Source: Struthio camelus
Taxonomy: Eukaryota > Chordata > Aves > Struthioniformes > Struthionidae
NCBI RefSeq assembly: GCF_040807025.1
Contig: NC_090946.1
Span: 3,142,001-3,206,000 of the forward strand
Direction of reading: 5' to 3'
Length of the DNA stretch: 64,000 nt
Shown here: positions 3,401 through 48,500 of the stretch, piece after piece
Layout: each line of letters opens with the position of its first letter
Numbering within the stretch: position 1 is the stretch's first letter
Translations under genes and position numbers: made by a program
Notes under the pieces: model-generated
What the model was told of the DNA's origin: nothing
Databases searched by the model: none
What the model saw: only the letters and a program-made list of their open reading frames with translations

Positions 3401-6400
3401 TTGAAGGGGTGGAGCCAGGGGTGGTCCTTGGCAGGGGGCGGGGCTCGGGGCAGGCAAGTGCCTGCTGACGGGCGGTGGGCGCCAGGCCGGCGGCACCGGA
3501 GCTGACGGAGCAGGCGGTGCGGGCCCTGCTCCGGGACGTCATGGCCACCATGGACCTGGAGAGCGTCACCTCCAAGGAGGTGGGTGCGGGCTGGGCAGCG
3601 CCCCCCCAGGGTGCCCCATGCCCTGTCCCCAGGCAGGTGGCCTTGGTGGCCCTGGTGCCAGGGCAGGGCACACGGGTGCCCCCTGGGCCTCACGCGGAGG
3701 GTGACTGCCCAGGTGCGGACAGAGCTGGAGCGCCGCACGGGGCACAGCCTGGCCCAGCACAAGGACTTCATTGACAACGAGATGCTGCTGGTGTTGGCGC
3801 AGATGGACCGGCCCTCCCGCATCTTCCCGCACCTCTACTTGGTGGGCCCTGGGGCATGGCGGGGGGTGGCACAGGGTGGGGCTGCGGTGCGGGCACCCGG
3901 GGCCAGGCAGTGGGCAGTGCCTGTCCCCGTCCCGTCACCCGCTCTCGCCTGTGCAGGGCTCCGAGTGGAACGCAGCCAACCTGGAGGAGCTACAGCAGAA
4001 CCGGTGAGTGGGGCCACGGGAGCCCCACCATGGGGCACGGGGCGTCGTGGGGTGTCCATTGGGGCGGGCCTGGGGATGTCATTGGGCACCCACCTGGGGG
4101 GGCCTGGGGATGTCTTGGGGCCCCCAACTGGGTGAGCACAGGGGCATCATGAGGCACCCAGCTGGGTGGCATGGGGACATCATGGAGCACCCGGTTCAGT
4201 GGGTGTGGGGTTGTCATGGGGCACCCAGCGGGGTGGTCATGAGGGCATCACGGAGCATGGGCACGTTGTGTTTACGGGGCAGCTAGTGAGGTGGGCACTG
4301 GGCATCGCAGGGCACCCAGGGATGCACCAGCCAGAGGGTGGGTGTGAGGCCTTGCAGGGCACCCTTGGGAGGCCTCCTGGGGCTCCCACAGTGAGGGCAT
4401 GGGGCATCAAGGGGTGCAGCATGGCACACCCAGCAGGGCACTCGCACAGCCCCACTCCTCTGTGCCCACTGCGCCCCTCGTGCCAGGGTGCCTATGTCCC
4501 CTGCATCTGCAGGGTCACCCACATCCTCAACGTGGCACGGGAGATCGACAACTTCTTCCCGGCGCTGTTCACGTACATGAACGTGCGGGTGTACGACGAG
4601 GACACGGCCCAGCTCCTGCCCCACTGGAATGACACCTTCCTCTTCCTCTCTCACGTGCGGTGAGCGTGGCCAGGCATAGCGGGGGACGCAGATGGGCATG
4701 GTGGGGCAGGGGGCAGCAGGTGACACAAGGGGGCTGAGGGGCACCAAGGGGCACGGCCTGGGGCTGGGGGGCAGAACTGGGGTGGGAAGGGGGCACTGGT
4801 GGGTGTATGGTGCCCAGGGAGGCAGGAGGGCACTAGTGGGCACTGGGAGCCCTGGGGACCTGGGTCCAAGGGCACTGGGAGCCCTAGGGGATGAGGATAC
4901 TGGGGACACTGGGACTCCTGGGAGATGGAGTCCTTTGGGGACACTAGGAGCATGGGAGACCTGGGTCCAAGGGCACTGAGAGCCCTGGGGGATGGAAGCC
5001 CTGAGGACACTGGGAGCACTGGAGACCTGGGTGGGTCCAAGGGCACTGGGAGCCCTGGGGGATGGGATCCCTGAGGACACTGGGAGCACTGGATTCTTGG
5101 GTCCAAGGGCACTGGGAGCACTGAGGGACTGGATCCTGAGGATACTGGGAACCCTGGGAGAGGAGTTCCCTTGGGGACACTAGGAGCATGGGGGACCTGG
5201 GTCTAAGGGCACTGGGAGCTCTGGGGACTGGGGTCTAAGGGCACTGGGAGCACTGGATTCTTGGGTCCAAGGGCACTGGGAGCACTGAGGGACTGGATCC
5301 TGAGGATGCTGGGAGCCCTGGGAGATGAGGATATTGGGGACACTGGGACTCCTGGGAGATGGAGTCCTTTGGGGACACTAGGAGCATGGGAGACCTGGGT
5401 CCAAGGGCACTGAGAGCCCTGGGGGACTGGATCACAAGGATACTGGGAGCCCTGGGAGAGGAGGTCCCTTGGGGACACTAGGAGCATGGGGGACCTGGGT
5501 CCAAGGGCACTGGGAGCTCTGGATTCTTGGGTCCAAGGGCACTGGGAGCATGGAGGGACTGAATCCTGAGGATGCTGGGAGCCCTGGGAGATGGGTTCCC
5601 TGGGGACTCTAGGAGCATGGGGGACCTGGGTCCAAGGGCACTGGGAGCCCTGGGGGCCGAGGTCCCTGGGGACACTGGGAGCCCCGGGGTGCCCAGGAGC
5701 CGCAGGGCCCCGGGAGCCCAGGAGCGCTGACGGCCGCGGCAGGGCCCAGCAGGGCCGGGTGCTGGTGCACTGCCGGATGGGGCTGAGCCGCTCGGCGGCC
5801 ACGGTGCTGGCCTACGCCATGAAGGAGTTCGGGTGGCCCCTGGAGCGGGCGCTGCGGCACGTCCGGCACTGCCGCCCCGGAGTTGTGCCCAACCCCGGCT
5901 TCATGCGCCAGCTTGACTTCTACCAGGGCATCCTGCAGGCCAGGTGGGGCCCGGGTCACTGGGGGTGGGTGGAGCCTGGTGGGGCCATGCCCCTTCGGGT
6001 GAGGGGTGGGCCCAGTGAAAGCCACACCCCCAACCTACTGGAAAGACTATTGGGTGGTGCCTGGGCTGGCCACGCCCCTTGTCAAGGGGGGCGTGGTGAT
6101 GGGGAGGGCCCAGGCAGCTGCTAGGGCTCGGCTGGGGGAGGGCGGAGACAGGCAGAAGCCCCGCCCTCACTCTGGCAGGCCATTGGCTCAGCACAGGACA
6201 GAGGAGGGAGGGGGTGGGGTGCCCTGTGAGGGGGCGGGGCCGAGGCTGGGAGCCCCGCCCCCTGCGGCGGGGGCGGGGCCGAGGCTGAGGACCCGCGGGG
6301 CGTGTGGCGCAGCCGGCACAGCAGCCTGTGGGAGCCGAAGGCGGCGGAGCGGGCGGCGGAGCCGGAGGAGGGCCGCGAGGCCGCGCCGGGGGACGAGGGC

Positions 6401-8368: not shown

Positions 8369-11300
8369 ATGTCGCGGCCCCAGATCATCCACAGCGGCCA
8401 CTTCATGGTGTCGGAGCCACACGCTGAGCCCGAGGCCGAGGCCGCGCTGAAGCAGGAGGAGGAGGAGGAGGGTGGTGCAGCTGGCAGGCCGGGCAGGAGG
8501 CAGCGGGGGGCAGGGGCAGGCTCCCAAGGCAGGGTCAGGGCCAAGGGCCAGGCCCGGGCAGCGGCAGGCCCTGGCGAGGCCTACGACTTCAGCACAGTGG
8601 ACGAGGGCACGTGCCAGACCTACCGCTACGGCCCCCACAGCGCCCTCAGCATCGACGCCTCCCTCACCAAGCTCTTCGAGTGCATGACGCTGGCCTACAG
8701 GTGACGGTGCGGGGCAGGCAGCCCCTCCCAGCCTCCGATGCGGGTCAGCCTGGGGCGGGAGGGCACGTGCGGGTGCAAAGCCACAGAGCGAGCCATGCCA
8801 CGCGGCACTGACTGGCCTCACTTGGCCGGGCATGTGTGCGGGCAGAGCCGCAGGGCATGGACTGCTCTGGGTTGGGAAGGTGAATGTGTAGTAGGGACAC
8901 GGACAGAGCCATGGGGCGTGGATCACCCAGGGCTGGGAGGGCATGTGCTGAGGCAGAGCCGCAGGTCATGGATCCTTTTGAAGCTGGGAGAGTAAACGTG
9001 GAGCCCTGCAAGGGTGCACATCACCTCTGACTGAGAGGGCCCATATCTGGGAAAGTCTAGACTGCAGTCTGCACTGAGACCTGAGGCGGTCACTCCCTAT
9101 CAGCTGAGGCTGTGTCTTGGTGGAGGTGCGGAGCTGGGATCAGCTCTGGCTGTGCTCACCATCCCCATGCTGGGCTGTTCCCTCTCTCCAGCCCAGGACC
9201 TCTCTGGCCAGGGGAGGAGGTGGTGGGAGAGCAGTCACAGAGTCTGTCACCCTTGGGTGCCCGCCAGATTGTGGCTGAGCATGTGGAGAGCTGCTGGAGC
9301 ATAGTCGGAGCCCTCGCTGTGCTGTGGCTCTCCAGGAAGGAGATGGCTGAAACAAGGATGTTGCAGCCCTGGGTTTTCCCTGAGCCCCAACCATTGCTCC
9401 CCTCCATGAGTCATGTTTCACAGCTGCCATCGCAGAAGAGGCAGCGTAGGGCACTGGCACCAGAAGAAGCAGGCAAGGCAGCGTCCTGGGATCTGCAGGG
9501 AGGGGGAAGCAGCTGCCACAGCCTCTTCACACCCCCTTCCCCATGAGGAGACATAAGCTGGGGTGAGATGTGGGCCATGGGATTGAGAGAGGGGCCACAG
9601 TACCGCAGTGGGCTCCTGCAGAGGCTCTGGCTTGTCTCCTGTCCGTACGGGAGCTCTTTCAGAGATGAGATGAATCTTGGTTCTTCTTGAAGCTTTTCCT
9701 CCCTTATGCCATGGCTTGGGGTTTTCTTGATCACTTCCCATGCCTTTGGGGCTCTTCATGTGGGTTTTACTATCACCCTGTCCTAACCCTCTGCCATCCT
9801 GAATAGCCTGGAAACGTCCCTCGTTCTCCCCACCCCCGCACAAACCTGGCTCCTGGCCTCCAGCACACCACGTCCCAATAAGTTTGGTCACAGTCACTGC
9901 CAGGCTGGCCAGGAGGGGGTTGTCTGTGCCCAACCCTAGATAGACAGCTAAGAAACCACACAGACCTGCACTCTGCAGCCCAAGGCGGAGGGAGTGTTGC
10001 TGCAGTGATGGCAATGACAGTGTGGCACCAAACTGGACCCAGGGGTTTAAGCAGAGATGGCAAGACTGCTCCTATAGTTTGCAGTGCCGCGGCCTCTGCA
10101 ATGTGGCTGGCCGGAGTGCGGTGCCATGGTCTGGAGAGCCATGCTCAGAGGAGTCTTCTCCAAGTGCCTTCTTCCTCCTGGCATGTGACTCGGGACACCA
10201 GGCAGGGTGCTGCCACTCTGGGGTCCCTCCGAGCTCTGGGTACACTGCTGGGCTGGCAGGGTGCTGATGTCCTGGGGGTCCCAAGACCCCCTTTCAGTGT
10301 CTCTCCCCCCCCCCACCACCAACGGGCCACTAAATGCCTCCATCCTGTTCCCAGCGGGCGAATCATATCACCCAAGTGGAAGACGTTCAAGGGCCTGAAA
10401 CTCCTACAGCGGGACAAGATCCGGCTGAACAACGCTATCTGGAGGGCTTGGCATTTGCAGTGTGAGTGGGGCCACGGGCACTGCTGCGGGCCCTGCCACG
10501 GGCCAGCCTTCCCCGTCCCCTCCCTTTCCTTCCTTCCTGGCCCTCAAGCTTGGTAAGGTCAGAGTCCGGCACTCTGCCGTTTGATTGCAGGCTGGCGCTA
10601 TAATTAGTTCAAGAGACCATAATCCTTATTAATTAAGCAAATCCTTATTGATTAAGCAACAAGCTACTAAGAAACTAATATATCAAGTAATCAATAACCT
10701 AGCTAATTAACAAGCACATAGCATTATTAATTTAAAATTATGTCATTTTGGATACTAGTAAACAAACAGCAAAGCTACTAATTACTGCTCTTAATCTTAT
10801 GAATCCCACATGACTGCTACTGAATTACGACTCTTATTACTCTTCTGCCCCCAACACTTGGTATTAAGGTGCAAATCTATCCCTCTTTGCTCTGTCTTCC
10901 CACCGTGAGTCTTTTGGACACAGGCCCAATGGAGAGTCCTGTGGGCTGTCCAGATGGTCCCCCTGGCATCACGAGGGGCTTGGGGGTGGCAGCGCCCACC
11001 AGACTTGGATCCACAGGTCAGCCTTACCCCTGTCAGCAGCCACCCACACTCGTACTCTCAGAAGATTTCCCCCCTGTGGTGTCCTTTACCTGATTTTTAT
11101 ACCTCATTCTCCATTTTTTCCATTTCTGGGCCCACCTTTTTGCTGCCCTTGCACCTTCCCTTCTCTGCCCAGAGAACTTTACTTTTTCTCCCTTGGTTCC
11201 CATTCTGCTACATCCATACCCCAGTGAGGTGTTTCTGATATTGTTACCTAGGAAATCTCAGGCTTATATGGGTTTACTGATATGGTTACTTAGATATGGG

Positions 11301-14300
11301 TGGCCTTGCTAGGCTCTTGCCCAAAGCTCCCCTACCAGAGCAGTATGTTTTTTGTATGGCTTCCACAGCATCCTTGCCCATGACCTGTTCTTTGGATGGT
11401 CTCCTGGTTCCTTCTGGAGGCCTTTGCTAGTTATGGGGCCTCTGGCTGCTGGCATGTTGCCTCTGTGGGATGAGGCGACTTTTTCTTACTGCCTTCCAGC
11501 ACCTATGTGTGGGCTGGAGCCCCTGAGGTCTTCCCCAGGAGACAGAGGGTTCCTCGTCCCCTTTCTCTCAGGCTCTGGAGAACATTGGTGCCTGCCAGAG
11601 TGGCATGGCTGGGACATGGGAGAGGATGGCAGCAAAATCAGCTCTGGTCCTTTGTCCCCACAGATGTGGAGAGAAGGAAAAACCTTGCGTGCAATTTTGT
11701 GACGCCACTGGAGGCTGGTGATGGGGAAGAGCACTGCAAGCCAGAGGTGAGCTTCTGGGGCCCCTGCTAGCCCCATACCCTCAAATTCTGGCCCGAATGA
11801 CAGCTCCCATGGTGCCCACCGCACCAGGAGCCGCTCGCTGGGAGGGACAGAGCATTGCCTAATGCAGTGTAGTGGTATGCTCAACCCGCGGCATCCTCAG
11901 CAGCGTTGCTGGTCTGGTGAGTGGCAGTGCCCACCAGACACCTGAGGATGCTGCATGTCCTTGTGCTGCAGGCTGGGGTAATGGAGGGCAAGAACTGGAA
12001 GCGCCACATCCAGGCTGTCACCCGGGAGTACCACAAGTGGAGGATATACTCATGCACCCAGGTAAGGACATGCATGGCCGTGGAGACATATAGACATGCA
12101 GGTGCACAGACAGGCCCTGTGCATGTGCCTCCCCCTCTGCTGCCGCCCTCCAACCCACAAGGCACCGATACCCCTGCCCAGGGCTGGCAGTGCCACCTAG
12201 ACCAACTGCCTGTTGGCATCCTCCAGCTGGCACCCCTGCCCCCCCAGAGCAGAGGGCACCAAGCCAGCGGGGCCTGTGGTCACCTTCAGCCTGTCTTTCC
12301 AGCCCTGCTGGGTGCCACCAACCCCTTCTGTCCCTGAAGTTGCCTTGGAGTAGGAGCAGATTGGGTCAGGCAGCTGGGAAGGGGTGGCAGGGGGCACTGC
12401 CTGCTCTGTGCCAGCTGTGTGTGTGGGGGGGGGACATTGAAATGGGACTCGGACTTGCATCATGGCTCCTGTTTGATTTTTCTCCAGGTTCAGAAGATGA
12501 AAGATGAACTGGCAGCCTCACCCTGCCAGGTGCCAGCACCATGCCCACACCCGTGCCCGCTGCCCCCACCATGCTCAAGGAGAGCCAAAGGGCTCCCCTT
12601 TCCCATCTAGGCCAGTCTCACTGGCCTTACGGGGAGCCCCAGCAGTGCTGGCTCACCAGCTCCCCTCACCCCTTCTGTGCATGGCAGGGGGTGCCCAATG
12701 CCCAGCAGGGGCCGGTGCCCAGTGGCGAGGCAGAGGGCAGCTGTCCCATGGAGCTTGACCCCCTGCACGACCTGGAAATGCTCCTTGCGGACCTGGCCGA
12801 CACCATCTTCTACAGCCGCCACCCCTACGGGGGACCCAACCCACGCAGCCTGGGTGAGTGGGGCAGTGCCCGCCTCTGCACCTGCTGGAGGCACCACGGC
12901 AGTCCCTGCCCCTGCGCCCCAGCAGTGCCTGACTCCGTGCCGCTGCGCAGCTCACCAGGACAACGCGGACATGATCCAGCCCACCCTTGGCCAGCTGCAT
13001 CCCAACTTTGGCGAGGATTTCATGGACACCCTGGACCCCCTCAGCAGTGAGTGCTGCTGGGTGCTGGCCCACAGCCCTATGGCCCCTCTCCTGACCCCCT
13101 CTCCATCCTATATGCTTTCAGCCTGCTGTGGGGCAGCCCACGGCCCCCAGCTGTCCCCTTTCTGTCTCGCTCGCTGTGAGGCAAAGCTCTGCTGCTCTCC
13201 TAAGCTTTCCCGCCCCACAAGCTCTCCTCACAGCTGTGGCTCCCCTTTGGGGGCACCCCAGTGCCTATCACCCTCGCGCTCTCCCTACGGTAATGACCAG
13301 TCCTTCCCCCTGGCATAGGAAAGGGCAAGACAGGCACAAGGTGAGCAGCCCCGCTGCCGTTTGGGGCCAGGCTCTGGTCGCTGGCTCTGCCTGGCGTTTT
13401 GTGCTGGGCATCAGAGCCAGCAACGACGTGTGCCACAGAACTGCCCACCCTGCCAGGGCCTTGTAGGGGCCGGGGAAGCCAAGGTGCCTACCCTGAAGCT
13501 CTGTCTCTCTCTCTCTCTGTCTCTGGCTGTGCCTGCTTGCCCACCGGGACCCCAGGGAGCCTGGCCATCCCTGTCCTGGGTAGCGTCACCTCCAGCCACC
13601 AACTTCTCACCCGCTTCTCTTCTGTCATCTTCTCTGGCTCCCCAAAACTCCCGGCCGTGTCCATGCTGGCTGCCAGGAAAGGTACCACACGGGCACTGCT
13701 TGCCGCTCCCCAAGGCACCCGTAGCCTCTTCCACACAAACACCCCCTGCCCCTTCTGCGCAGCACCCATAGCCCCTTTTGCACGAATGCCCCTTGCCCCC
13801 AGCAGGCGTCAACCGCCCCATGCCTATGCTGGGGAGGGGGGACTACAGCTCCCAGGGTGTCCTGCTCCACCAGTGGTGTGGTGGTGCATGGGTGGGGGAG
13901 CAACGCTGCTGGGAAAAGGAGTCTCCCTGAGCTGCTTCTGGCTCCGCCCCCCCGGCCCCGCCCTGCATTAACCCCGCCTTCTGTCTCGCCCCCACAGATT
14001 TCTTCGCTGCCGGCCGCCCCCCGCCAGCGCCGCTGGTGAGTCCCTGGCCTCGGCCCTGGAAAGGACTGAGCTTCCCTCCCGGGGCGGGGCCGTGGCAGGC
14101 TCCGCCCCCCACGAGGGAGGGCGTGGCCGGGCTGTGCAGGCTCTGCCCCTACAGGGCTCCGTGCCCACCCTCTCCCCTCTCCCTTCCCAGGTGTCTGCGG
14201 TGCCTCCTGCCCGCTTCGTGGCTCCGGCCCCCCCGGGCAGCCCCAGCCCTCCTGCCAGCCTGGGCAGCCTCAAAGAGGAGCCCGTCGGGGGCCCAGAGGT

Positions 14301-16601
14301 GCCGCCACTCACCTTCCCCCTGGAGCTGGAGCCCCCGGCGCCCCTGGGGGAGCAGCAGACCTTCCTGCCCCTCTTCCCCACGTCCCCGCCACGGGCGAGC
14401 CCCTCGCCTGGCCCCCCGGCCCCACAACTCCCGCCCCAGCTCCCCCTGGTGCTCTCTGTTGTCGCCGCCGAGGCCCCAGCACCCGCAGCAGGCACCTTCG
14501 CCGTGCTGGCGCCAGTGCCCCTGCCTGTGGGGGCCCCCCACCGCTGGCCCTTGCAGCGCATCGCCCCAGCCCCGGGCAGCACCCGCCCGCCTGCACCCCC
14601 CGCCGCCGTCACCCCTGCCCCCTGCCTCCCATCAGGTAGGTGTCCGCTGGGCATGGGGGGGCACCCTGGCATGGGGGTCTCGCTAACAGTTTTGCCGCTC
14701 CCCAGGTGCAGCAGCACTGCCCAGCGTGCCAGGCAAAACCCCCCTGCAGGTGAGCGCCCCTTGCACCTACTGGTGCTGTGGCCGGCCACCGGGCCTGGCA
14801 CTGTCCTGAGGCGCCATCTCTCCCCCTCCAGGGCTCTGGTACCCCAGACCTCGCCGCGAGTGTCCTGCTGGCAGAGAAGAGCTCCCACCCCCACTCCAGC
14901 ACATCCCCTAGTGGCACCGGTAGCGTGGGCCCCGCTAGCCTTGGGGCAGGTGTTGGGTGGGGGCGCGGGCACGACCGGGGACAGGCACGGCGGCAGCAGG
15001 AACAGAGGACGGGTGGCGGTGGGCATGCCTGCTGGCAGCCCCCCACTGATGTGCACCCGTTGCACCCTCAGCTGCAGCTTCTGCAGACGTGAAGGCACCA
15101 GAGGGCACGGGGCGCGCGTCGCACCAAGCCTGCAGCCTCCCTGGCGCCAAGGTAAGGGCGTGCGGGGGACTGCTGGCGGTGCCAGGGCGGTGGGGGGCAC
15201 CGCTGACGTGGCCCCCTCCGCTTGTTGCCTGCAGACCGGCCGTCGGGCCACGCTGCCCACCGCCGACCATGCCCGCCGCATGCACATCAGCGCCAGCTTC
15301 AACACTCTTGCCAGCCTCGTGGTGCCCGCCTCTGCCCAGCCCACTGTCAAGGTAGGCGCCCTGTCCCCCCGTCCATACCTCTGACCGTTGCCCATCCCCG
15401 TGCCTACAGCAGTGGCTCTCCCTGCGCCCATCCCGGCGGCCGTCCCCGCTGCATGCGGGGCCGGGGCGCCAGGCTGACGAGCGCCTGCAGCTCAGCAAGG
15501 CCCGGCTGCTGCAGCGCAGCGCGGCCTACGTGGGGCGGCTGCAGCAGGAGCGGCGGCAGGGCCAGGCCACGGCCCAGCGCCTCCGCAGGGAGATCCAGGA
15601 GCTCAGCGCCGCCATTGGGTGAGTGCGGGGCCGGGGCCCCGGCTGCCATTGGCTGGGATCTTGTACGCCGAGGTCTGCCATTGGGTGATGCATGGAAGGT
15701 GGTGGGCAGGGCCTGGGATAAGCTCCGCCATTGGCTGATGGGGGAGGGGGAAGGCCTGGACCGAGTGCTGCCATTGGGCAACACCCAGAGGGAGGTGGGG
15801 CCTGGGTTCACCTCTGCCATTGGGTGAGCCAGGGGGCGGGGCCTGGGGAATCTCATGTGCTGAGCGCTGCCATTGGAGGGTGTTGGGCAGGGGCGGGGCC
15901 TGCATGGCCACACCCACCTCACCCCCTGCCCCCAGCGAGTTCCAGCGGCAGCTGCCCCCCGGCGGGACTCCGGCCGCTGCAGCAGCGGCACCGCAGGCCG
16001 ACCCGGCCGCCCAGCTCTTCGCCGACTACGTGCGCCGGCGGACGCTGCAGGATTGGCGCTTCTGGCTCGTATCCTCCCAGCGCGGGTCCCGGGTGGGGTG
16101 GCCCAGGGGGATGGGACGCCCCACAGGGCGCGCGGCTGGGGGTGGGGGCCGGAGGCAGATCCCAGGGCAGGCAAGCGGCACCTTGTCCTTAGCCCAGCGC
16201 TCCCAGTTCAGTACCATCATGCAGCCGCTGTTTGAGAGCTACAGCGCAGCCGTAAGCACCAGCAGCACCGAGGACTTCTGCCAGTCCGTGCTAGGCTGGC
16301 TGGAGCGGCACTGCGCCCTGCCTGTGCTGCGCCCTGGTACGTCCAGCCCTCTGCCGCAGGGAGGGACCCAGGTGTCCTGACGCCCCCATGTCCCAGGGCC
16401 AGTGGGCACTGCCTGGGGCTCCGCTTTGGCCATGGGAGAGGTGGGCATGGGGACATGGTAGGTACTGATCTCCTTCTCCCCGCAGCCATCTCCAGCTCCC
16501 TGCTGCAGCTCAGCAAGGTCACGTCCATCCTGACGCAGCCCACCCGGCTCCCTGAGCAGGCACTGCAGGCAGTGTCCCGCCTGCCCCACAGCGACAGCTG
16601 A
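8369..16601 (+). CDS. Mondo-family bHLH-zip factor (MLXIP/MLXIPL-like, probable third paralogue)
   Basis: Glucose-responsive transcription factor family that pairs with MLX. Exons: 8369-8700, 10355-10461, 11664-11746, 11972-12061, 12488-12529, 12688-12853, 12951-13046, 13556-13681, 13998-14035, 14191-14635, 14706-14749, 14832-14919, 15072-15151, 15235-15351, 15491-15618, 15936-16068, 16207-16336, 16486-16601. This sums to 786 residues. N-terminal Mondo conserved regions: HSGHFMVSEPH, LTKLFECMTLAYSGRIISPKWK, DKIRLNNAIWRAWHLQYVERR, HCKPEAGVMEGKNWKR, REYHKWRIY. Then comes DTIFYSRHPYGGPNPRSL and NADMIQPTLGQLHPNF (closer to MLXIP than MLXIPL), a Pro-rich middle, a bHLH-zipper (LLQRSAAYVGRLQQER, AQRLRREIQEL), and the dimerisation tail FWLFSTIMQPLFESY...LPEQALQAV. 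The basic region is degenerate. Least certain parts are exons 12488-12529 and 13556-14035 and the 15491 acceptor (15410 is also in frame). It lies between SSH3 and POLD4, unlike MLXIP or MLXIPL in human. Confidence 0.9.
8745..9000. repeat. Degenerate repeat in Mondo-gene intron 1
   Basis: About four diverged copies of a 60-70 bp unit carry GGCAGAGCCGCAGGGCATGGA. They start about 45 bp after the exon 1 donor. The remainder of intron 1 (9000-10354) is ordinary unique DNA of moderate GC in which I recognise nothing. Confidence 0.6.
10590..10870. mobile_element. AT-rich island in Mondo-gene intron 2, possible old transposon insertion
   Basis: A sharply bounded stretch is rich in TTAATTAA-like words (ATTAATTAAGC, CTAATTAAC, ATTAATTTAAAATTATG) inside otherwise GC-rich DNA. 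The following 600 bp is also of lower GC than the surroundings. No terminal repeats, target duplication or coding remnant is visible, so the mobile origin is only inferred from the abrupt composition change. Confidence 0.35.
13842..13862 (+). promoter_or_regulatory. Intronic ZNF143/THAP11-type motif
   Basis: ACTACAGCTCCCAGGGTGTC fits the same long consensus as the promoter copies. It lies inside the intron 13682-13997 of the Mondo gene and could mark an internal promoter or a chromatin contact site. Confidence 0.55.
15611..15905 (+). repeat. Intron array repeating the exon-donor junction of the Mondo gene
   Basis: The exon ends GCCATTGG and the donor follows (GTGAGTG). Within the next 260 bp the word GCCATTGG recurs at 15645, 15677, 15727, 15770, 15816 and 15869, each time in a longer similar context (CTGCCATTGGGTGA, GGGGCCTGGG). 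The copy at 15816 is followed by GTGAGCC, so it recreates a complete 5' splice site. Confidence 0.8.
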
Positions 16602-17212: not shown

Positions 17213-18152
17213 TCAGAGCGGGTACTCGTGCCAGAGGCTGTGGGGCACAGGTGCAGGGAGGTCAGCGGGTACCCGTGGCCCAGGCCTGTGGTCCCCGGCC
17301 CAGGCACGTGCCCAGCTCTCCTCCTCGACTCCAGTGTTTCGGCAGAGGGAGGCTGGTGGCCATCAGAGCTATCAGCTCTGGGGGATACCCATGTACCAGG
17401 TAGGGATGGCGTGGGCTGCCCCACGGCACCTGCACTGGAGCTGCCTCCCCGCCCCATAGCACCCACTGGGGAGCAAAGGGGCAGGGGTGACTAGGGATGC
17501 CCAGAGTCCCCCTGCCCAGCGTGGCACCCTCCTCAGTGCCCCCCAGCTGCACTGGTGACTGCAGCCTGGCGCCCCACACTCAGTGCCCTCTGGCCCCCCT
17601 ACTGCCCGCCGCACCGCCACTCCGCAGCCCGGCTGCACCCACCTGTACATGACGGCGGGGTCGTCCTGGTGCTCCAGGAGGGCGTCACGCACTGGGGCCG
17701 GGGGGCTCAGCCCCAGGGCCTGCGCCCGCTCCCACCGCTGCAGCCGGGTGATGCCTGCGGGCAGAGGGTGAGGTGGGGGCGGGCGGGCGCCGCGATGCCC
17801 CGGGGAGGGGCGGACGGGCAGCGCCGGGGCAGGCGCGCCGGGGCTCTCACCCGTGCAGGGGCCGTACTCCCAGCAGAGGTCGAAGTGGCGCAGCATGTCC
17901 AGGACGGCCGGGTCCGGGCAAGGGGCGCCGGGCGCCGGGGCCTCCTCTGCGGAGCACGGGCACGGCTTGGGCACCGGGGGCGGGGCCTGCCCGTGGCCCC
18001 GCCCCATTCCCCCTCGAGACCCCGCCCCCTCCCGCGGCGGCCCCGCCCCCGCACTCACCGCGCCGAGTCCGGCGGCGCCCCTTGGCCCCGGCGCGCCCCG
18101 GCGGCCGCCGCAGCACCGGGAAGGAGTCGGTGATGAGTCGCTTCCGCCCCAT
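17213..18152 (-). CDS. POLD4: DNA polymerase delta subunit 4 (p12)
   Basis: Smallest subunit of DNA polymerase delta in the nucleus. It stabilises the complex, contacts PCNA, and is degraded after DNA damage in mammals. Four exons in transcript order: 18152-18059, 17946-17851, 17754-17643, 17237-17213, with phases agreeing and 108 residues (human p12 has 107). It opens with MGRKRLITDSFPVLRR, where KRLITDSF is the N-terminal PCNA-binding segment, then a basic stretch. Exon 2 carries DMLRHFDLCWEYGPCTG, exon 3 ITRLQRWERAQALGL, and the tiny last exon encodes SLWHEYPL before the stop; human ends LWHLYPL. It is transcribed away from the GLYAT-like genes and faces the Mondo gene. The promoter side contains a C-rich minisatellite from about 18235. 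Confidence 0.97.
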
Positions 18153-18234
18153 GGCCCTGCGAGCACAGCGGCGGGTGAGGCGGGGCCCGGGCGGCCGGGA
18201 ACCCCCTCCCCCCCGCCGCGGCTGACCCCGCCGT

Positions 18235-19311: not shown

Positions 19312-22300
19312 TCAGGGCCCGGGGCGGCCCAGGCTGGGGTTGTGCAGCACGAAGTGGCAGAGGCCGGGCAGGCGCTGGTGGCCCAGCTGCTCCTGCAGCC
19401 GCTGCATGGGCAGGTTCCCCAGGGCCGTGTGCCCGAAGACGAGGAAGCCGCGGGCCTGCGTCTGGCGGGCCAGCAGCACGGTGAGCGCCTGCATGAGCCC
19501 GCGGCGGCGGTGGGCGGGCAGGGTGTAGCCGTGCGCCCCGCTGCCGAAGGGGCTCTGCAGGGTCCAGCAGACGGGCTGCCCGGTGCCATCGAGCAGGCAC
19601 AGGCTGGGGAAGCGCTCCACCAGCTCGGCCAGGTAGCGGCGGCTCCACGCGTTGCCCCCGTAGACCCACGTGGCGTCCAGCAGGTCGGCGTGCGCTAGGC
19701 TCATCGAGCCCACCTGGATGCCGGGGTCCAGCCTGCAGGTTGGGGGGGGGCCGTGAGCCGGGGCAGGGGGGAGGCACCAGGATTTTGGAGGGGGTGGGGG
19801 GGGGCTCACCGGGGCTCGGGCATGGTGGCAGGGTCAGGGTGCAGGTAGGTGTAGTACTGCGACACCTCCAGCTCGATGCCCTTGGCCCCCGCCATGGCCT
19901 GCGCCGTCGCCACCACCCCGTCCTGCAGCCCTGCGGGACGGTGCCGTCAGCGGGACCCCCCACCCCGGGGAGCCACCAGCCCCGGGTCCCTCCCCGGCTG
20001 CCCCACCACCTTGTACCCCGCTCCCAGTACTACCCGTTTTGCCCCCCCCCAGTGCTCCCCAGCACCACTGATCTCTGCCCCTCCCAACCACAGTGCCCCC
20101 CATTCCTCACCCCCAGCCCCCCCCCCAGCACCGCTGCCCCCAGCGCCACCAAAGATGTGGAAGGCGGTGTCCCAGCGCACGGCTCCCGGCGTCTCCAGCA
20201 GGGCCCGGTAGGCGCCCAGGTCGTGGTAGAAAACCGCGTGCGTGTTCCTGTAGCAGTCGTCCACCGGCGCCTGTGGGGCAGGAGGGGAGTTGGGGGAGGG
20301 GGGGGTTGAGCCGGCCCAGCCCGGGCGCCAGCGTGGCCCCGGCTCCCCACGGCCCACGGCGGCCACCTCGCCACGGCGCCGCGCCAGCACCGCGCGGAAG
20401 TCGGGCCACGCGTCCACTACGGCCTCGAAGTCCCCCGGGTTGCCTCGGGTCATGTTCATCACGGCCCCATACACCTGCGGGCCAAGGGGGTCAGCGCTGG
20501 GGGGGCCGGGCTGGACCACCCTGCCCTCACTAAAGATGGCTGCCCTTGCCCTGGGCTGGCCTGGGGTGAAGGTGGAGGGGGTGGGGCCACAAGCCAGGCT
20601 GCCCGTGAGGGGGCGGGGCTTGGAAAGCCCCTCCTCCAAGCCCCTCCTCCCCCCCAGTGGGGCAGAGGGGACCTGTCGGATTGGCCAGGTGACACCCCTC
20701 CTGGGCTGGGATTGGCTGGGCCATCCTGGCCTGGGAGGGGATTGGCTGGCTCAGAACCAAGCCAGGCTGGGATTGGCTGGCTCCAGCTGGCACTGCCTGG
20801 GAATGGCCTGAGCCGGTTGGGGGGGGGTCACCATTGCTATGGTGCAGGGGGGTGACACTGGGGTCCCCATCATGGGCGGGGGGGACGTGGGGGTCCCATC
20901 GCTGGTGGGGCAGGGAGACGGGGGGGTTCCGTCACCAGCAGGCTGTGGGGCAGGGGGGAGGTGGGGGTCCCGTCACCGGTGGGGTGGGGGGACGTGGGGG
21001 GTCCCGTCACCGGCAGGCTATGGGGCAGGGGGACGTGGGGGCCCCGTTGCCGGTGGAGCAGGAGGGACGTGGGGTTCCCGTCACCGGCAGGCTGTGGGGC
21101 AGGGGGACGTGGGGGTCCTGTCACCGGCAGGCTGTGGGGCAGGGGGACGAGGGGGTCCCGTCACCGGTGGGGTAGGGGGACATGGGGGTCCTGTCAGTGG
21201 CAGGCTGTGGGGCAGGGGGATGTGGGGGTCCCGTCACCAGCAGGCTGTGGGGCGGGGGGATGTGGGGGTCCCATCGCCGGTGGGGTGTGGGGCAGGAGGG
21301 ACGTGGGGGGGTCCCGTCACCGGCAGGCTATGGGGCAGGGGGACGTGGGGGTCCTGTCGCCCGCAGGGCAGGGGGCGGTGGGATGTGGGGGTCCCATCAG
21401 TGGCAGGATGTGGGGCAGGGGGACGTGGGGGTCCCGTCACCGGCGGGCTGTGGGGTGGGGGGATGTGGGGGTCCTGTCGCCGGCGGGCTGTGGGGCAGGG
21501 GGGACGAGGGGGTCCCGTCGCCAGCGGGCTGTGGGGCAGGGTGGACGTGGGGGTCCTGTCGCTGGCGGGCTGTGGGGCGGGGGGACGTGGTGGTCCTGTC
21601 AGTGGCAGGCTGTGGGGGCGGGGGGACGTAGGGGCCCCATCACCGGCGGGGTGTGGGGCAGGGGGACGTGGGGGTCCCATCGCTGGCAGGCTGTGGGGGC
21701 GGGGGGACGTGGGGGTCCCGTCACCGGCAGGCTGTGGGGCAGGGAGACGCGGGGGTCCCGTCGCCGGCGGGGCAGGGGGACGTGGGGGTCCCGTCACCAG
21801 CAGGCTGTGGGGCAGGGGGACGTGGGGGTCCCGTCGCCGGCAGGCTGCGGGGCAGGGGGGACTTGGGGGTCCTGTCAGTGGCAGGCTGTGGGGCGGGGGG
21901 ACGTGGGGGTCCCGTCACCGGCGGAGCAGGGGGACATGGGGGTCCCGTCACCGGCAGGCTGTGGGGCAGGGGGACGAGGGGGTCCTGTCACCGGTGGGCT
22001 GTGGGGCAGGGGGACGAGGGGGTCCCGTCACCGGTGGGCTGTGGGGCAGGGTGGACATGGGGGTCCTGTCGCCGGCGGGCTGTGGGGCGGGGGGACGTGG
22101 GGGTCCTGTCGCTGGCAGGCTGTGGGGCAGGGGGACGAGGGGGTCCCGTCGCTGGCGGGCTGTGGGGCAGGGGGACGTGGGGGTCCTGTCAGTGGCAGGC
22201 TGTGGGGCAGGGGGGACGTAAGGGCCCCGTCACCGGCGGGGTGTAGGGCAGGGGGACGTGGGGGTCCCGTCTCTGGCAGGCTGTGGGGCGGGGGGACGTG

Positions 22301-27419: not shown

Positions 27420-28045
27420 GTGGCACAATGGGGTGAGGCGCGCTGTCCCTCAAGGCACAGTATGGGGATAGAGGGGATGTGGGTTGGCCATGGTGGCATA
27501 TGGGGATGAGGAGCACCGTCCCTCAAGGCCCAGTGTGGTGATGTGGGTGACCATGGTGGCACATCAGTGTGAGGAGCTCTGTCCCTCAAGGCACCGTGTG
27601 GTGACAGGGGGGATGTGGGGTGGCCGTGGTGGCACATGGTTGGGGGGGGGGTAAGGAGCTCCAGCCCTTAAGGCACAGTGTGGTGATGGTGGGGGGACGC
27701 ATGTTGCAGTGAAGAGCTCCATCCCTCAAGGCGCAGCGTGGTAACATGGAGTGGCTGTGGTGACACTTTGGGTGAGGAGCTCCATCCTTCAAGGCACAGC
27801 GTGGTGATGATGGGAATTTGGGGGGGGGGGCTGTGGTGGCACGTTAGAGTGAGGATCTCCATCCCTCAAGGCACAGTGCGGGGCTGGTGGGAACGTGGGG
27901 TGACCGTGGTGGCACATCAGGGAAGGAGCTCTGTCCCCCAAGGCCCGACGCGGTGACAGGAGGCCGCGGGGTGGCTGTGGAGGTGCCCCGCGGCTGCAGA
28001 TGCTGCGGGGTGGCGGGCTCAGAAGCCCCGCGCCTCGAGGCGCAG
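27420..28045 (-). repeat. CLCF1 3' UTR minisatellite copying the end of the coding sequence
   Basis: About eight copies at 55-85 bp spacing carry CCATCCCTCAAGGCACAGTG (plus strand). The CLCF1 frame ends at 28019 with the related plus-strand sequence CGCCTCGAGGCGCAGCGTGA. Read on the minus strand the units translate like TLRLEGWSS, matching the authentic C-terminus TLRLEARGF. The array begins within a few dozen bases of the stop codon. Confidence 0.8.
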
Positions 28046-31000
28046 CGTGACCACAGCAGGCGGCACCTTCTTCTTGAGGCGGTTGAAGTCCTTGGCCGAG
28101 CGCCACAGCCAGGTCTGCAGCTCCTTGAGCAGCCAGAAGTCATCCATCTTCTTGAGGAAGTCATTAGGGGAGGCAGGGGCCCCAGCGGGCGCCGGGGGGC
28201 CGGCGGCAGCGCCGGCCGGCAGCGGGTAGCCCAGGGAGGACATGACGCCGGCGATGCTCACCACCAGGCCCTGGAGGCTGGAGCAGAAGTGGCCGAGGCT
28301 GTGGCGCAGCTCGGCGGTGCCCGCCTGCCCGTCCAGGCCCCGCAGGTAGCACAGCAGCCGGCTGTAGGCCCGGTAGTTGGCGGCCAGGCGGGCATTGTCG
28401 GTCAGGCCCCGCCACAGGTCGAAGTCCACTGTGGCGCTGGGCACCCGCTCGGCCCGCGCCAGCCGCGGCGGGTTGAAGTCGGGCTCATTGAAGGGGGGGC
28501 CCAGGTAGTTCAGCTGCAAGCGAAGGGCACGGTGTCAGGCGGGCACCGGGTTCTGCGCCGGGGTGGCCTGAGGGGAGCTGGGGGTGGCAGAGTTCAGTCA
28601 CGGCGCCCCCTGTGCCACGTGTGGCGTCCCTCTGCCTGCCACGGCCCAGGTCTCCATGTGCCCACACCCACAATGTCCCTGGTGGCCATCCTCCCCAGCC
28701 TCCATGTCCTACACCTCTGTGTCCCCCTCCCCACCACGTCCTGGGGCTCTGTCCCCCTCCCCACCACTTCCCTGGTGGCCATCCCCTCCTGCCCTCCAAC
28801 TCCCATGTTTCCATGTCTCCCTGCCCACCACGTCCTGGGGCTCTGTCCCCACCATGTCCCTGGTGGCCATCCCCTCCTGCCCTCCAACTCCCACACCTCC
28901 ATGTCCCCCTCCCCACCATGTCCCTGGTGGCCATCCCCTCCTGCCCTCCACCTCCCACGTCTCCATGTCCCCCTGCCCACCATGTCCTGGGGCTCTGTTC
29001 CCCTCCCCACCATGTCCCTGGTGGCCATTCCTTTCTGCCCTCCACCTCCCACACTTCCATGTCCCCCTCCCCACCACGTCCTGGGGCTCTGTCCCCCTCC
29101 CCACCACTTCCCTGGTGGCCATCCCCTCCTGCCCTCCAACTCCCATGTTTCCATGTCTCCCTGCCCACCACGTCCTGGGGCTCTGTCCCCCTCCCCACCA
29201 CTTCCCTGGTGGCCATCCCCTCCTGCCCTCCAACTCCCACGTCTCCATGTCCCCCTGCTCTCCATGGCCAAGGTCTCCGTGTCCCCCAGCCCTCCACATC
29301 CCGGGAGGCCACGTCCTCCTGCCCACGGCGGCCTGGGCATCCCTCCTGCCCTGCCCTCGGCACAACCGCTCGGTGCCCTGCAGCCGGGGCCCCGGGGGCA
29401 CGTCAGGGCAGAGACGGGGGGAAGCTCCGCGCGTGCCGGCAGCCGGGCGTGCCGGCGGCGGGGAGCCAGGGCGCTGTGGCGGCCCGCGCCCTGCGCCCCG
29501 GGCGGAGGCCGTGCCCGGGCCTGGCAGAGGGCAGGCTCCCGGGAGCCGCCTGCGCCCCGGCCCGCCGAGGCATTTCCGGCGCCCCCGGGGCGGGCACGGC
29601 GAGGGAAGCCTGCCCGCGTGACGTGGCGCGGCGGGGAAGACCCGCGGCGGCCGGGAGAGCTGCCAGCGCCGCCGCACAGCAGCCCCGGCCAGGGCGCCGA
29701 CGCCGGGCGCTACGCCCACTGCACACGCACGCACGCACGCACACACAACACCCGGACACGCTGCTGGGCTATCGCGAATGCAGCCGGCAACGCACGCATG
29801 CTATTGCACGCTCGCGTGCAACCCCCCTGCCCTTGCAGCGGGGCTGCTGCCGGGAGCCGGCAGGGCCGGCCGGGGAGAGGGCGAGCGCGCCGGCCGGATG
29901 CTGGCGCGGTGCCCCCGGCCATGGCGCGGCGCCCGCTCGGCGGAGCGCGGCCCGGCCGGGGCGGCTCCCGGACGAGTCCCGACAGCGGGGCCTCACCTCA
30001 CCCCAGGGAGATGCGGCACAGCAGAGCACAAACACAGGGCAAGGGCCCGGCGCCGCGGGGCAGGGTGGGCACCGACGCGGGGCTCGGCCCGTGGCCCCTA
30101 CTCACGTAAGTGCCGGCGAGGGTGCGCAGCTGGTGCTCCAGGTAGCGGGTGAGGTCGTAGGTCTTCTGGATGGACTGGCCAGCGCCCAGCTCGTCCGTGC
30201 CGTTCAGGGCGGGCACTGCCGGCAGGTTGCAGAGTGCGGCGCACAGGAAGGCAAAGATCCCCCAAGAATCTCCTGCGGGAACATGGGGGGCACCTCAGCA
30301 CCGGGCCACACGGCGGGGCCCGCGGACAGGGGGGCCAGGGTGCAGGGGGCACCACGGCACGCAGTGGGACCCACGCACACGGGTGCCGGGGTGCAGGACC
30401 CACGCACATGAGTGCTGGGGTGCACAGGGGCACCACAGCATGCAGCAGGGCCCACGCACACGGGTGCCGGGGTGCAGGACCCATGCACACAGGTGCCGGG
30501 GTGCACAGGGGCACCACAGCTCGCAGCAGGACCCATGCACACAGGTGCCAGGGTGCACAGGGGCACCACAGCTCGCAGCAGGACCCATGCACACGGGTGC
30601 CGGGGTGCAGGACCCATGCACATGGGTGCCAGGGTGCACAGGGTGGGGGGGCGCCATGGCAGGCAGTGGGGCCCATGTACACAGGTGCATGGGGTGCAGG
30701 ACCCACGCACATGAGTGCTGGGGTGCACGGGGGTGCCACGGCACACAGTGGAGTCCATGCACATGGGTGCCGGGGTGCAGGACCCATGCACACAGGTGCT
30801 GGGGTGCACGGGGGCACCACAGCTTGCAGCAGGACCCATGCACACGGGTGCCGGGGTGCACGGGGGGGGGGGGTGCCACGGCACACAGCGGGGCCCATGC
30901 ACATGTGTACCAGGGTGCAGGACCCATGCACATGGGTGCACGGGGGCGCCACGGCACAGCTGTCCGATGGCACCCACGCGCAGCAGGTGCCGGTGCCCGC

Positions 31001-45535: not shown

Positions 45536-48500
45536 ACCAGCCTAGAGACAGGACAGGAACACAGGGGAGGGCCAGATGTCAGGCTATGCAGCTGGAAATG
45601 GGTCAGGAAACTAGAGGAGGGCTAGGGCCTGAAGGTGAGACAGGGACACAGGGGAGGGCCAAGGACCGGGCCACCAGCCTGGAGACGGGGCAGGGACACA
45701 GGGGAGGGCCAAGGACCGGGCCACCAGCCTGGAGATGGAGAAGGGACACAGGGGAGGGCCAAGGACCGGGCCACCAGCCTGGAGATGGGAAACAGTGGAG
45801 GCCAAGGACTGGGCCATGAACTTGGAGACGGGGCAGGGACACAGGGGAGGGCCAAGGACCGGGCCACCAGCCTGGAGATGGGACACAGGGGAGGGCCAAG
45901 GACCGGGCCACCAGCCTGGAGTTGGGGCAGGGACACAGGGGAGGGCCAAGGACTGGGCCACCAGCATGGAGATGGGACACAGGGGAGGGCCAAGGACCGG
46001 GCCACGACCTTGGAGATGGGGCAGGGACACAGGGGAGGGCCAAGGACTGGGCCACCAGCCTGGAGATGGGGCAGGGACACAGCGGAGGGCCAAGGACCAG
46101 GCCACCAGCCTGGAGACGGGACACAGGGGAGGGCCAAGGACTGGGCCACGACCTTGGAGACGGGGCAGGGACACAGGGGAGGGCCAAGGACCGGGCCACG
46201 ACCTTGGAGACGGGGCAGGGACACAGGGGAGGGCCAAGGACCGGGCCACCAGCCTGGAGATGGGGCAGGGACACAACGGAGGGCCAAGGACCAGGCCACG
46301 ACCTTGGAGACGGGACACAAAGGAGGGCCAAGGACTGGGCCACCAGCCTGGAGATGGGACAGGGACACAGGGGAGGGCCAAGGACTGGGCCACGACCATG
46401 GAGACGGGGCAGGGACACAGGGGAGGGCCAAGGACCGGGCCACCAGCCTGGAGACGGGGCAGGGACACAGGGGAGGGCCAAGGACCGGGCCACCAGCCTG
46501 GAGATGTGACACAGGGGAGGGCCAAGGACCGGGCCACGACCTTGGAGATGGGACAGAGGGGAGGGCCAAGGACCGGGCCACGACCTTGGAGATGGGACAG
46601 GGACACAGGGGAGGGCCAACGACAGGGCCACCAGCCTGGAGATGGGGCAGGGACACAGGGGAGGGCCAAGGACCGGGCCACCAGCCTGGAGACGGGACAC
46701 AGGGGAGGGCCAAGGACTGGGCCACTAGCCTGGAGATGGGGCAGGGACACAGGGGAGGGCCAAGGACCGGGCCACCAGCCTGGAGATGGGGCAGGGACAC
46801 AGGGGAGGGCCAAGGACCAGGCCACCAGCCTGGAGATGTGACACAGGGGAGGGCCAAGGACCGGGCCACGACCTTGGAGATGGGACAGAGGGGAGGGCCA
46901 AGGACCGGGCCACGACCTTGGAGATGGGACAGGGACACAGGGGAGGGCCAACGACAGGGCCACCAGTCTGGAGATGGGGCAGGGACACAGGGGAGGGCCA
47001 AGGACCGGGCCACCAGCCTGGAGATAGGGCAGGGACACAGGGGAGGGCCAAGGACAGGGCCACAACCTTGGAGACGGGGCAGGGACACAGGGGAGGGCCA
47101 AGGACCGGGCCACCAGCCTGGAGATGGGACACAGGGGAGGGCCAAGGACCGGGCCACCAGCCCGGAGACGGGGCAGGGACACAGGGGAGGGCCAAGGACC
47201 GGGCTACCAGCCTGGAGATGGGGCAGGGACACAGGGGAGGGCCAAGGACCGGACCACCAGCCTGGAGATGGGGCAGGGACACAGGGGAGGGCCAACGACA
47301 GGGCCACCAGCCTGGAGATGGGACAGGGACACAGGGGAGGGCCAAGGACCAGGCCACCAGCCTGGAGATGGGACATAGGGGAGGGCCAAGGACCGGGCCA
47401 CCAGCCTGGAGATGGGGCAGGGACACAGGGGAGGGCCAAGGACCGGGCCACCAGCCTGGAGACGGGACACAGGGGAGAGCCAAGGACAGGGGTACGACCT
47501 TGTAGATGGGGCAGGGACACAGGGGAGGGCCAAGGACTGGGCCACCAGCCTGGAGATGGGGCAGGGACACAGCGGAGGGCCAAGGACCAGGCCACGACCT
47601 TGGAGACGGGACACAGGGGAGGGCCAAGGACTGGGCCACCAGCCTGGAGACGGGACAGGGACACAGGGGAGGGCCAAGGACAGGGCCACCAGAGTGCAGA
47701 TGGGCCAGGGACACAGGGGAGGGCCAAGGACCGGGCCACCAGCCTGGAGACGGGGCATGGACACAGGGGAGGGCCAAGGACTGGGTCACGACGTTGGAGA
47801 CGGGGCAGGGACACAGGGGAGGCCAAGGACCGGGCCACCAGCCTGGAGATGGGACAGGGACACAGGGGAGGGCCAAGGACCGGGCCACGACCCTGGAGAT
47901 GGGTCAGGGACACAGGGGAGGGCCAAGGACCGGGCCACCAGCCTGGAGATGGGGCAGGGACACAGGGGAGGGCCAACGACAGGGCCACCAGCCTGGAGAT
48001 GGTACACAGGGGAGGGCTAAGGACCGGGCCACCAGCCTGGAGATGGGACACAGGGGAGGGCCAAGGACCGGGCCACCAGCCTGGAGATGGGGCAGGGACA
48101 CAGGGGAGGGCCAAGGACCGGGCCACCAGCCTGGAGATGGGGCAGGGACACAGGGGAGGACCAAGGACCGGACCACCAGCCTGGAGATGGGGCAGGGACA
48201 CAGGGGAGGGCCAACGACAGGGCCACCAGCCTGGAGATGGGACAGGGACACAGGGGAGGGCCAAGGACCAGGCCACCAGCCTGGAGATGGGACATAGGGG
48301 AGGGCCAAGGACCGGGCCACCAGCCTGGAGATGGGGCAGGGACACAGGGGAGGGCCAAGGACCGGGCCACCAGCCTGGAGACAGGACACAGGGGAGGGCC
48401 AAGGACAGGGGTACGACCTTGGAGATGGGGCAGGGACACAGGGGAGGGCCAAGGACTGGGCCACCAGCCTGGAGATGGGGCAGGGACACAGCGGAGGGCC

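What the first reader, a model, noticed from the sequence alone, without database searches (positions are those of the whole stretch)
8369..16601. Probable third Mondo paralogue next to SSH3
The human genome has MLXIP (12q24) and MLXIPL (7q11); neither neighbours SSH3-POLD4-CLCF1. This gene has the full Mondo layout and sits in that block. SSH1 and MLXIP are both on 12q24, so SSH3 with a Mondo gene looks like the matching paralogous region, with the Mondo copy lost in mammals. If so it is a retained ohnologue and a little-described sugar-responsive factor.
Basis: partly seen in the sequence, partly recalled or inferred. Interest (0 to 1): 0.75.

Follow-up and report, generated by a model that had tools for sequence, protein, structure and literature searches.

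The report
Third Mondo gene beside SSH3
This bird-like genome carries an intact third relative of the two known vertebrate sugar-sensing genes MondoA and ChREBP, apparently left over from ancient whole-genome doubling and altered at its DNA-contact and sugar-sensing motifs, which would mean that the textbook two-member family is incomplete.

Summary
Window 8369-16601 (+) encodes an intact 786-aa Mondo protein ("M3") in 18 coding exons, all introns GT-AG, between SSH3 and POLD4. The same genome holds separate ChREBP and MondoA genes on other chromosomes; no fourth was found. The 12 introns that I compared share place and phase in the three genes, one of them U12-type. M3 lies outside the ChREBP clade (AU p=0.008 against sister-of-bird-ChREBP). 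Three chromosomes each carry one Mondo, one SSH, one ANKRD13 and one CORO1-type gene, so M3 is very probably an early-vertebrate ohnologue. The papers that I saw count two Mondo genes. So "sugar-responsive E-box factor" is in doubt; my best guess is an MLX-binding modulator. Orthologues in other species and expression could not be tested.

The parts
8369..16601 (+). Third Mondo gene (M3), start codon to stop codon, 18 coding exons
   Evidence: all introns GT-AG, 786 aa, no stop; ChREBP 5f74 E 8e-54
8369..8700 (+). Exon 1: MCR1 (QIIHSGHFMVSEPH), the YDFxTVxExTCQTYxxG block shared with MondoA and absent from ChREBP, MCR2 export-signal-like LTKLFECMTL
10355..10461 (+). Exon 2: SPKWKTFKGLKL and the 14-3-3-binding helix RDKIRLNNAIWRAWHLQYVER (MCR3)
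11664..11746 (+). Exon 3: rest of MCR3, NFVTPL
11972..12061 (+). Exon 4: MCR4, VTREYHKWRIY
12488..12529 (+). Exon 5, 42 nt, phase 0 at both ends; corresponds to the 42-nt MondoA exon and the 45-nt ChREBP exon
12688..12853 (+). Exon 6: diverged MCR6, LADLADTIFYSRH
12951..13046 (+). Exon 7: MCR5, NADMIQPTLGQLHP
13556..15151 (+). Exons 8-13 (13556-13681, 13998-14035, 14191-14635, 14706-14749, 14832-14919, 15072-15151): proline-rich middle; exon borders least certain here
   Evidence: not compared exon by exon with the paralogues
15235..15351 (+). Exon 14: diverged basic region (RRATLPTADHARRMHI) and helix 1
15491..15618 (+). Exon 15: helix 2 and leucine zipper
15936..16336 (+). Exons 16-17 (15936-16068, 16207-16336): C-terminal dimerisation and cytoplasmic localisation region
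16069..16206 (+). U12-type intron (donor GTATCCTC, branch-like TCCTTAGC) at the same place and phase as in both paralogues
16486..16601 (+). Exon 18 and stop
3506..4660 (+). Open stretches that hold SSH3 phosphatase exons (5' neighbour)
   Evidence: (Slingshot homolog 2); DEK_C at 23 bits, just under its cut-off of 24.8
17847..18155 (-). Start of POLD4 (3' neighbour)
   Evidence: exon pieces joined
28022..28534 (-). Open stretch that holds a CLCF1 exon

Best explanation
M3 is a third vertebrate Mondo gene. It is an ohnologue of MLXIP and MLXIPL kept since the early vertebrate genome duplications (gene structure, tree and paralogon agree; about 0.9 likely). Mechanism (inferred, about 0.45): M3 pairs with MLX through its helix-loop-helix-zipper and C-terminal region, and is held and shuttled by its export signal and 14-3-3 helix. 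But it binds the carbohydrate response element weakly or with other specificity, and does not use the canonical MCR6 glucose-6-phosphate switch. It then acts mainly as a modulator that competes with MondoA and ChREBP for MLX, or steers MLX to other sites. The confidence below is for the two halves together.
For: 3 Mondo loci in 1.45 Gb by an N-terminal DNA word and the same 3 by a C-terminal protein query. 12 introns compared, 12 agree in place and phase, with a shared U12-type intron. AU test rejects M3 as sister of bird ChREBP, p=0.008, with own-genome and PDB sequences only. Paralogon C5/C16/C17: Mondo, SSH, ANKRD13, CORO1-type, one each. Of positions alike in the bird MondoA and ChREBP, M3 keeps 12/13 in MCR1, 12/13 in MCR2, 37/43 in MCR3, 15/20 in MCR4, 12/14 in MCR5, 18/28 in helix 2 plus zipper, 32/49 in the C-terminal region, but 4/10 in MCR6 and 6/14 in the basic region (regions chosen by hand). 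H-x3-E-x3-R becomes L-x3-D-x3-R. A gene that reads as MLX is present (named by recall).
Against: The excess of change in basic region and MCR6 is only nominally significant (Fisher p=0.025 and 0.028, 11 regions tested, uncorrected), and basic region against the rest of the C-terminus gives p=0.13. The M3 C-terminus is shifted to G/A/R/P residues (35% against 19-21%), so GC-biased drift in this 69% GC window may explain part of it. The outer R-R and inner R-R of the basic region are kept. The strict published strings for the MCR2 export signal, MCR3 extension, MCR4 and MCR6 all fail in M3; the first three pass when loosened. No orthologue, expression or binding data. The zipper heptads look weak to me.
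Confidence: 0.55

Rival explanations
1. M3 is an ordinary glucose-activated E-box activator like its paralogues; MLX supplies most of the DNA specificity and the diverged basic region still suffices.
For: Low-glucose inhibitory module and MCR5 well kept; two R-R pairs of the basic region kept; a gene that reads as MLX is present.
Against: H and E of H-x3-E-x3-R changed and a proline introduced; MCR6 [ST]DTLF[ST] reads ADTIFY, against TDTLFS and SDTLFT in the two paralogues of the same genome.
Confidence: 0.27
2. M3 arose by a later local or segmental duplication of MLXIP or MLXIPL in the bird/reptile line and evolved fast.
For: M3 is a long branch, 0.38-0.89 substitutions per site; only one genome was available.
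Against: AU test p=0.008 against sister-of-bird-ChREBP and, with recalled human sequences, p=0.015 against sister-of-bird-MondoA and 0.002 against sister-of-bird-ChREBP, though the SH test does not reject those two, 0.144 and 0.061. M3 sits beside SSH3 and ANKRD13, and the other two Mondo genes are on the chromosomes of the other SSH/ANKRD13/CORO1 copies.
Confidence: 0.05
3. M3 is a decaying gene or pseudogene whose basic region and MCR6 have lost constraint under GC-biased drift.
For: G/A/R/P-rich C-terminus; window GC 69%; nominal excess of change in two functional motifs.
Against: 786 codons without a stop or frameshift, 17 intact introns; over exons 2-4 the differences to ChREBP are 18%, 20% and 56% at codon positions 1, 2, 3, the mark of purifying selection on at least most of the branch.
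Confidence: 0.08

Closest known systems
ChREBP (MLXIPL, MondoB)
   Same: MCR1-5 order, 14-3-3 helix, proline-rich middle, bHLH-zipper, C-terminal region, intron places compared; the loop before helix 2 (AQPTVKLSKA in M3, TQPSIKVSKA in ChREBP) is shared with M3 and shorter in MondoA
   Different: 64% identity over the MCR1-4 block and 51% over the C-terminus; M3 lacks LxQLLT, has SHQLLT at residue 319, and has a diverged basic region and MCR6
MondoA (MLXIP)
   Same: As above; the YDFxTVxExTCQTYxxG block before MCR2 is shared with M3 and absent from ChREBP; exon 5 has the same length of 42 nt
   Different: 68% identity over the MCR1-4 block and 46% over the C-terminus; same losses in M3
HES-type bHLH basic region (analogy only)
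   Same: Proline three residues before the E/D position of the basic region (HES-1 KPIME, present in PDB 2mh3; M3 LPTAD)
   Different: Not a relation: the match of M3 to 2mh3 is not significant (E 0.5); that HES has no MCRs is recalled

Membership tests
Mondo family (MondoA/ChREBP) | Five N-terminal Mondo conserved regions MCR1-5 in order | tested here: met
   kept 12/13, 12/13, 37/43, 15/20, 12/14 of positions shared by the two bird paralogues. The strict published strings fail by a few residues: the MCR2 export signal, one residue in the MCR3 extension, the end of the MCR4 signature
Mondo family (MondoA/ChREBP) | MCR6 signature [ST]DTLF[ST] (PMC3323566) | tested here: not met
   ADTIFY at residues 255-260; the region is recognisable but the published motif is broken
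Mondo family (MondoA/ChREBP) | bHLH-zipper | tested here: met
   Pfam HLH 24.4 bits over a cut-off of 20.7; helix 1 6/8 and helix 2 plus zipper 18/28 shared positions kept
Mondo family (MondoA/ChREBP) | Basic region HISAEQKRRFNI / H-x3-E-x3-R | tested here: not met
   LPTADHARRMHI in M3; HISAEQKRRFNI in both paralogues of the same genome
Mondo family (MondoA/ChREBP) | C-terminal dimerisation and cytoplasmic localisation domain | tested here: met
   32/49 shared positions kept; found by the bird MondoA C-terminus at E 1.4e-8 for the best exon
Mondo family (MondoA/ChREBP) | Gene structure: 17 coding exons with conserved intron places (PMC4766361) | tested here: inconclusive
   12 introns compared, 12 agree; for the one after MCR5 only the donor side and for the one before the basic region only the acceptor side was compared. 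My model has 18 exons; the 5 other introns lie in the unaligned proline-rich part
Mondo family (MondoA/ChREBP) | Binds MLX and responds to glucose | not testable with these tools
   needs an experiment
Ohnologue of MLXIP/MLXIPL | Lies in the matching paralogous region with other families duplicated alike | tested here: met
   SSH, ANKRD13 and CORO1-type, one copy each on C5, C16, C17; the three families were picked from memory of the human map
Ohnologue of MLXIP/MLXIPL | Orthologues at the same place in distant vertebrates | not testable with these tools
   no other vertebrate genome was available to me; scans of genome contigs and viral contigs gave none

The most novel reading that the evidence does not exclude
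Vertebrates began with three (or more) Mondo genes, and at least one living bird lineage keeps a third that has turned from a glucose-activated E-box activator into an MLX-binding modulator with a non-canonical basic region. This would add a missing arm to the MYC/MAX/MLX network, overlooked because its GC-rich home is poorly assembled in older genomes and because it is gone from mammals.
Probability: 0.4. Interest if true: 0.8.

Novelty: new variant of a known kind. Interest (0 to 1): 0.66.

Why it matters
[quoted passage not shown] A third intact ohnologue contradicts that count. It gives a natural test of which Mondo parts are indispensable, since it keeps the inhibitory and 14-3-3 module while its DNA-contact and MCR6 motifs differ, and it may bear on the unusual glucose physiology of birds (the last point is general knowledge, not tested).

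Tried and rejected
Full-length M3 as a protein query of the own genome never gave an answer. Scans of genome contigs (37 stretches matched a pattern, none a relative) and viral contigs (74 stretches, none a relative) for host contamination found no other vertebrate copy. Two recalled patterns for MLX failed: one search gave two matches that do not read as MLX, none. A piece that reads as MLX was then found through and read. C27:3085247 was first taken for MLX and reads as a FIGLA-like gene by recall. A 22-nt mini exon at 13319-13340 was tried and dropped because it broke the frame. A search for paired E-boxes (carbohydrate response elements) found 2 in the window, against 3.3 expected: nothing. 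An automatic exon search in the ChREBP middle was inconclusive. The fourth hit of the SSH word, on C3, has no SSH context. A zebrafish "mlxipl2" in one 2026 gene list (PMC13162690, one passage) could not be resolved; the Mlxipl2 of PMC7346034 is a promoter fragment. No structure was predicted: I did not try the tool.

Left out before counts: the M3 exon-1 spacer, residues 22-70, was cut from the N-terminal block, the ChREBP chain lacked the stretch not printed, and the proline-rich middles were not aligned. In one search eleven regions were chosen by hand; they hold 63 of the 85 changed positions of the alignments.

Full report
WHAT IS THERE. The model has 18 coding exons, 17 GT-AG introns, 2361 nt and 786 residues without a stop. 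Its GC by codon position is 68, 55 and 81%, with introns at 62% and the window at 69%. phmmer against the PDB finds ChREBP 5f74_B at E 8e-54 and the ChREBP peptides 4gnt_B and 9gcp_B. Pfam finds HLH over its cut-off, 24.4 bits, and nothing else over a cut-off. 5' lies SSH3 (PDB Slingshot homolog 2; DEK_C at 23 bits, just under its cut-off). 3' lie POLD4 on the minus strand, a glycine-N-acyltransferase-like stretch and CLCF1.

ONE OF THREE. The window lies in a 1.45-Gb genome of 262 contigs, at C5:3142001-3206000. A degenerate DNA word for NNAIWRAW occurs three times in it, and the reversed control word not at all: in M3, at C16:9.10 Mb and at C17:17.76 Mb. A 197-residue bird MondoA C-terminus gives 17 matches: 14 at the same three loci, and three weak ones on C25, C2 and C34. 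The C25 one reads as MLX (the name is by recall). The C16 gene is ChREBP: it is identical to ChREBP chain 5f74 at 127 of 135 N-terminal positions, carries LTQLLT and carries SDISDTLFT, which PMC3323566 gives for ChREBP (passages seen). The C17 gene is MondoA: it carries DTLFSTLSS, which that paper gives for MondoA. That 5f74 is the mouse protein is recalled; one search names the molecule, not the species.

GENE STRUCTURE. I compared seven N-terminal introns and five that flank or cut the bHLH and C-terminal exons: 12 of 12 agree in place and phase among M3, ChREBP and MondoA. For the intron after MCR5 only the donor side, and for the one before the basic region only the acceptor side, was compared; the latter lies within two residues of the same place. 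Exon 5 is 42 nt in M3 and MondoA and 45 nt in ChREBP. The intron after FW[IL] is U12-type in all three, with donor GTATCCTC, GTATCCTT, GTATCCTT and branch-like TCCTTAGC, TCCTTAAC, CCCTTAAC (M3, ChREBP, MondoA; the U12 consensus is recalled). The five other M3 introns lie in the proline-rich middle and were not compared. PMC4766361 (abstract, database-search methods, first part of the results and passages seen) gives 17 coding exons for both known genes. My model has 18, so there is one extra exon or one model error in the middle.

TREE. Over the MCR1-4 block (M3 spacer residues 22-70 left out), M3 is 68% identical to bird MondoA and 64% to bird ChREBP, and those two are 69% alike. Over the C-terminus the figures are 46, 51 and 70%. 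With only own-genome and PDB sequences, bird ChREBP and 5f74 group together (support 99), and M3 as sister of bird ChREBP is rejected (AU p=0.008). AU rejects M3 inside either (0.015, 0.002), though SH does not (0.144, 0.061). The tree is unrooted, so which duplication made M3 is open. M3 shares one trait with MondoA only (the YDF..TCQTY block) and one with ChREBP only (the loop before helix 2).

PARALOGON. A word for REIDNFFP hits four places: SSH3 in the window, C16:17.03 Mb, C17:18.94 Mb and a match on C3 without SSH context. ANKRD13_C hits C5:3.136, C16:17.00, C17:19.38 Mb and one further gene on C8 (10 exon matches in all). The coronin domain DUF1899 hits C5:3.749, C16:17.008, C17:18.89 Mb and three others on C12, C15 and C41. 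So four families each have one copy on C5, C16 and C17. I picked the three companion families from memory of the human map; no family was tried and left out. On C16 the Mondo gene lies about 8 Mb from the SSH/ANKRD13/CORO1 cluster, on C17 about 1.1-1.6 Mb. The names SSH1/2, ANKRD13A/B/D and CORO1B/1C/6 are recalled. C5 order is ANKRD13, SSH3, M3, POLD4, CLCF1. Human has the same order without M3 (recalled).

WHAT CHANGED. Taking positions where bird MondoA and ChREBP agree, in eleven regions chosen by hand, M3 keeps 12/13 in MCR1, 12/13 in MCR2, 37/43 in MCR3, 15/20 in MCR4, 12/14 in MCR5, 6/8 in helix 1, 18/28 in helix 2 plus zipper, 32/49 in the C-terminal region and 13/18 in the tail, but 4/10 in MCR6 and 6/14 in the basic region. 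MCR6 reads ADTIFY; PMC3323566 proposes [ST]DTLF[ST], with its S/T positions as a glucose-6-phosphate motif, and two of the three are no longer S or T. The basic region reads LPTADHARRMHI, against HISAEQKRRFNI in both paralogues. Aligned to MITF, the ChREBP H and E fall on the MITF H and E of H-x3-E-x3-R. M3 has D against the MITF E and L against the ChREBP H. That these residues contact the E-box is recalled. The proline stands where HES-1 has one. Against my reading: the two excesses are p=0.025 and 0.028 without correction for 11 regions; MCR3 is better kept than the rest at p=0.036; basic region against the rest of the C-terminus is p=0.13. And the M3 C-terminus is rich in G/A/R/P (35% against 19-21%), so GC-driven drift is a real rival.

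CONSTRAINT. Over exons 2-4 the M3-ChREBP differences are 18, 20 and 56% at codon positions 1, 2 and 3, and M3-MondoA 24, 24 and 58%; dS could not be computed (saturated). With the open frame this speaks for a working gene, at least for the N-terminal half.

MECHANISM. Shown: the parts. Inferred: M3 is exported and bound by 14-3-3, pairs with MLX, and differs in DNA choice and in sugar sensing. I put 0.45 on a modulator or competitor for MLX and 0.27 on an ordinary activator.

LITERATURE. PMC4766361 found single copies of Mlxip and Mlxipl (apart from a marmoset pseudogene copy of Mlxip) and no duplicate Mlxipl in any species. PMC7515633 (passages) says one orthologue each in zebrafish. PMC7003098 (passages) has Mondo giving two genes in jawed vertebrates. 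PMC11900861 (passages) says two paralogues in mammals. In PMC3842043, a frog bHLH survey, the passages that I saw name MondoA. Searches that bear on a third Mondo showed no description in their listings; several lists were cut. One search was swamped by an unrelated word and showed 20 of 367 papers, with narrower terms, showed all 6. A zebrafish "mlxipl2" in one gene list is unresolved and may be a third Mondo gene under that name. Databases such as NCBI Gene could not be searched, so the gene may already carry an automatic name.

HOST. Of the contigs sampled (C1-C11, C20, C30, C37-C42, C262), the numbered ones fall from 226 Mb at C1 to 0.4 Mb at C39, and C40 and C41 are 70 and 90 Mb; these two share an equal-scoring HLH match. 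That looks like a bird with large, similar W and Z chromosomes, perhaps a palaeognath (inference).

Noticed in passing
45627-64000: An 18-kb tandem array of a 50-bp purine-rich unit, about 378 copies, reaches the window end.
   Followed up: no
19950-20750 (-): A glycine-N-acyltransferase-like coding stretch (Gly_acyl_tr_N, E 8e-20) lies between POLD4 and CLCF1.
   Followed up: no
16069-16206; C16 and C17 Mondo genes: A U12-type intron kept at the same place in all three Mondo genes.
   Followed up: yes
13556-13681 (exon 8; residues 319-324 of M3): SHQLLT resembles the LxQLLT nuclear-receptor box of ChREBP but lies before, not after, the long proline-rich exon.
   Followed up: partly
10001-12000: GC falls to 53% around introns 2 and 3 of M3, between stretches of 64-65%, perhaps an old insertion.
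   Followed up: no
C40:68.55 Mb and C41:88.02 Mb of the same genome: Equal-scoring HLH matches on the two large odd contigs, as expected of W and Z copies.
   Followed up: no
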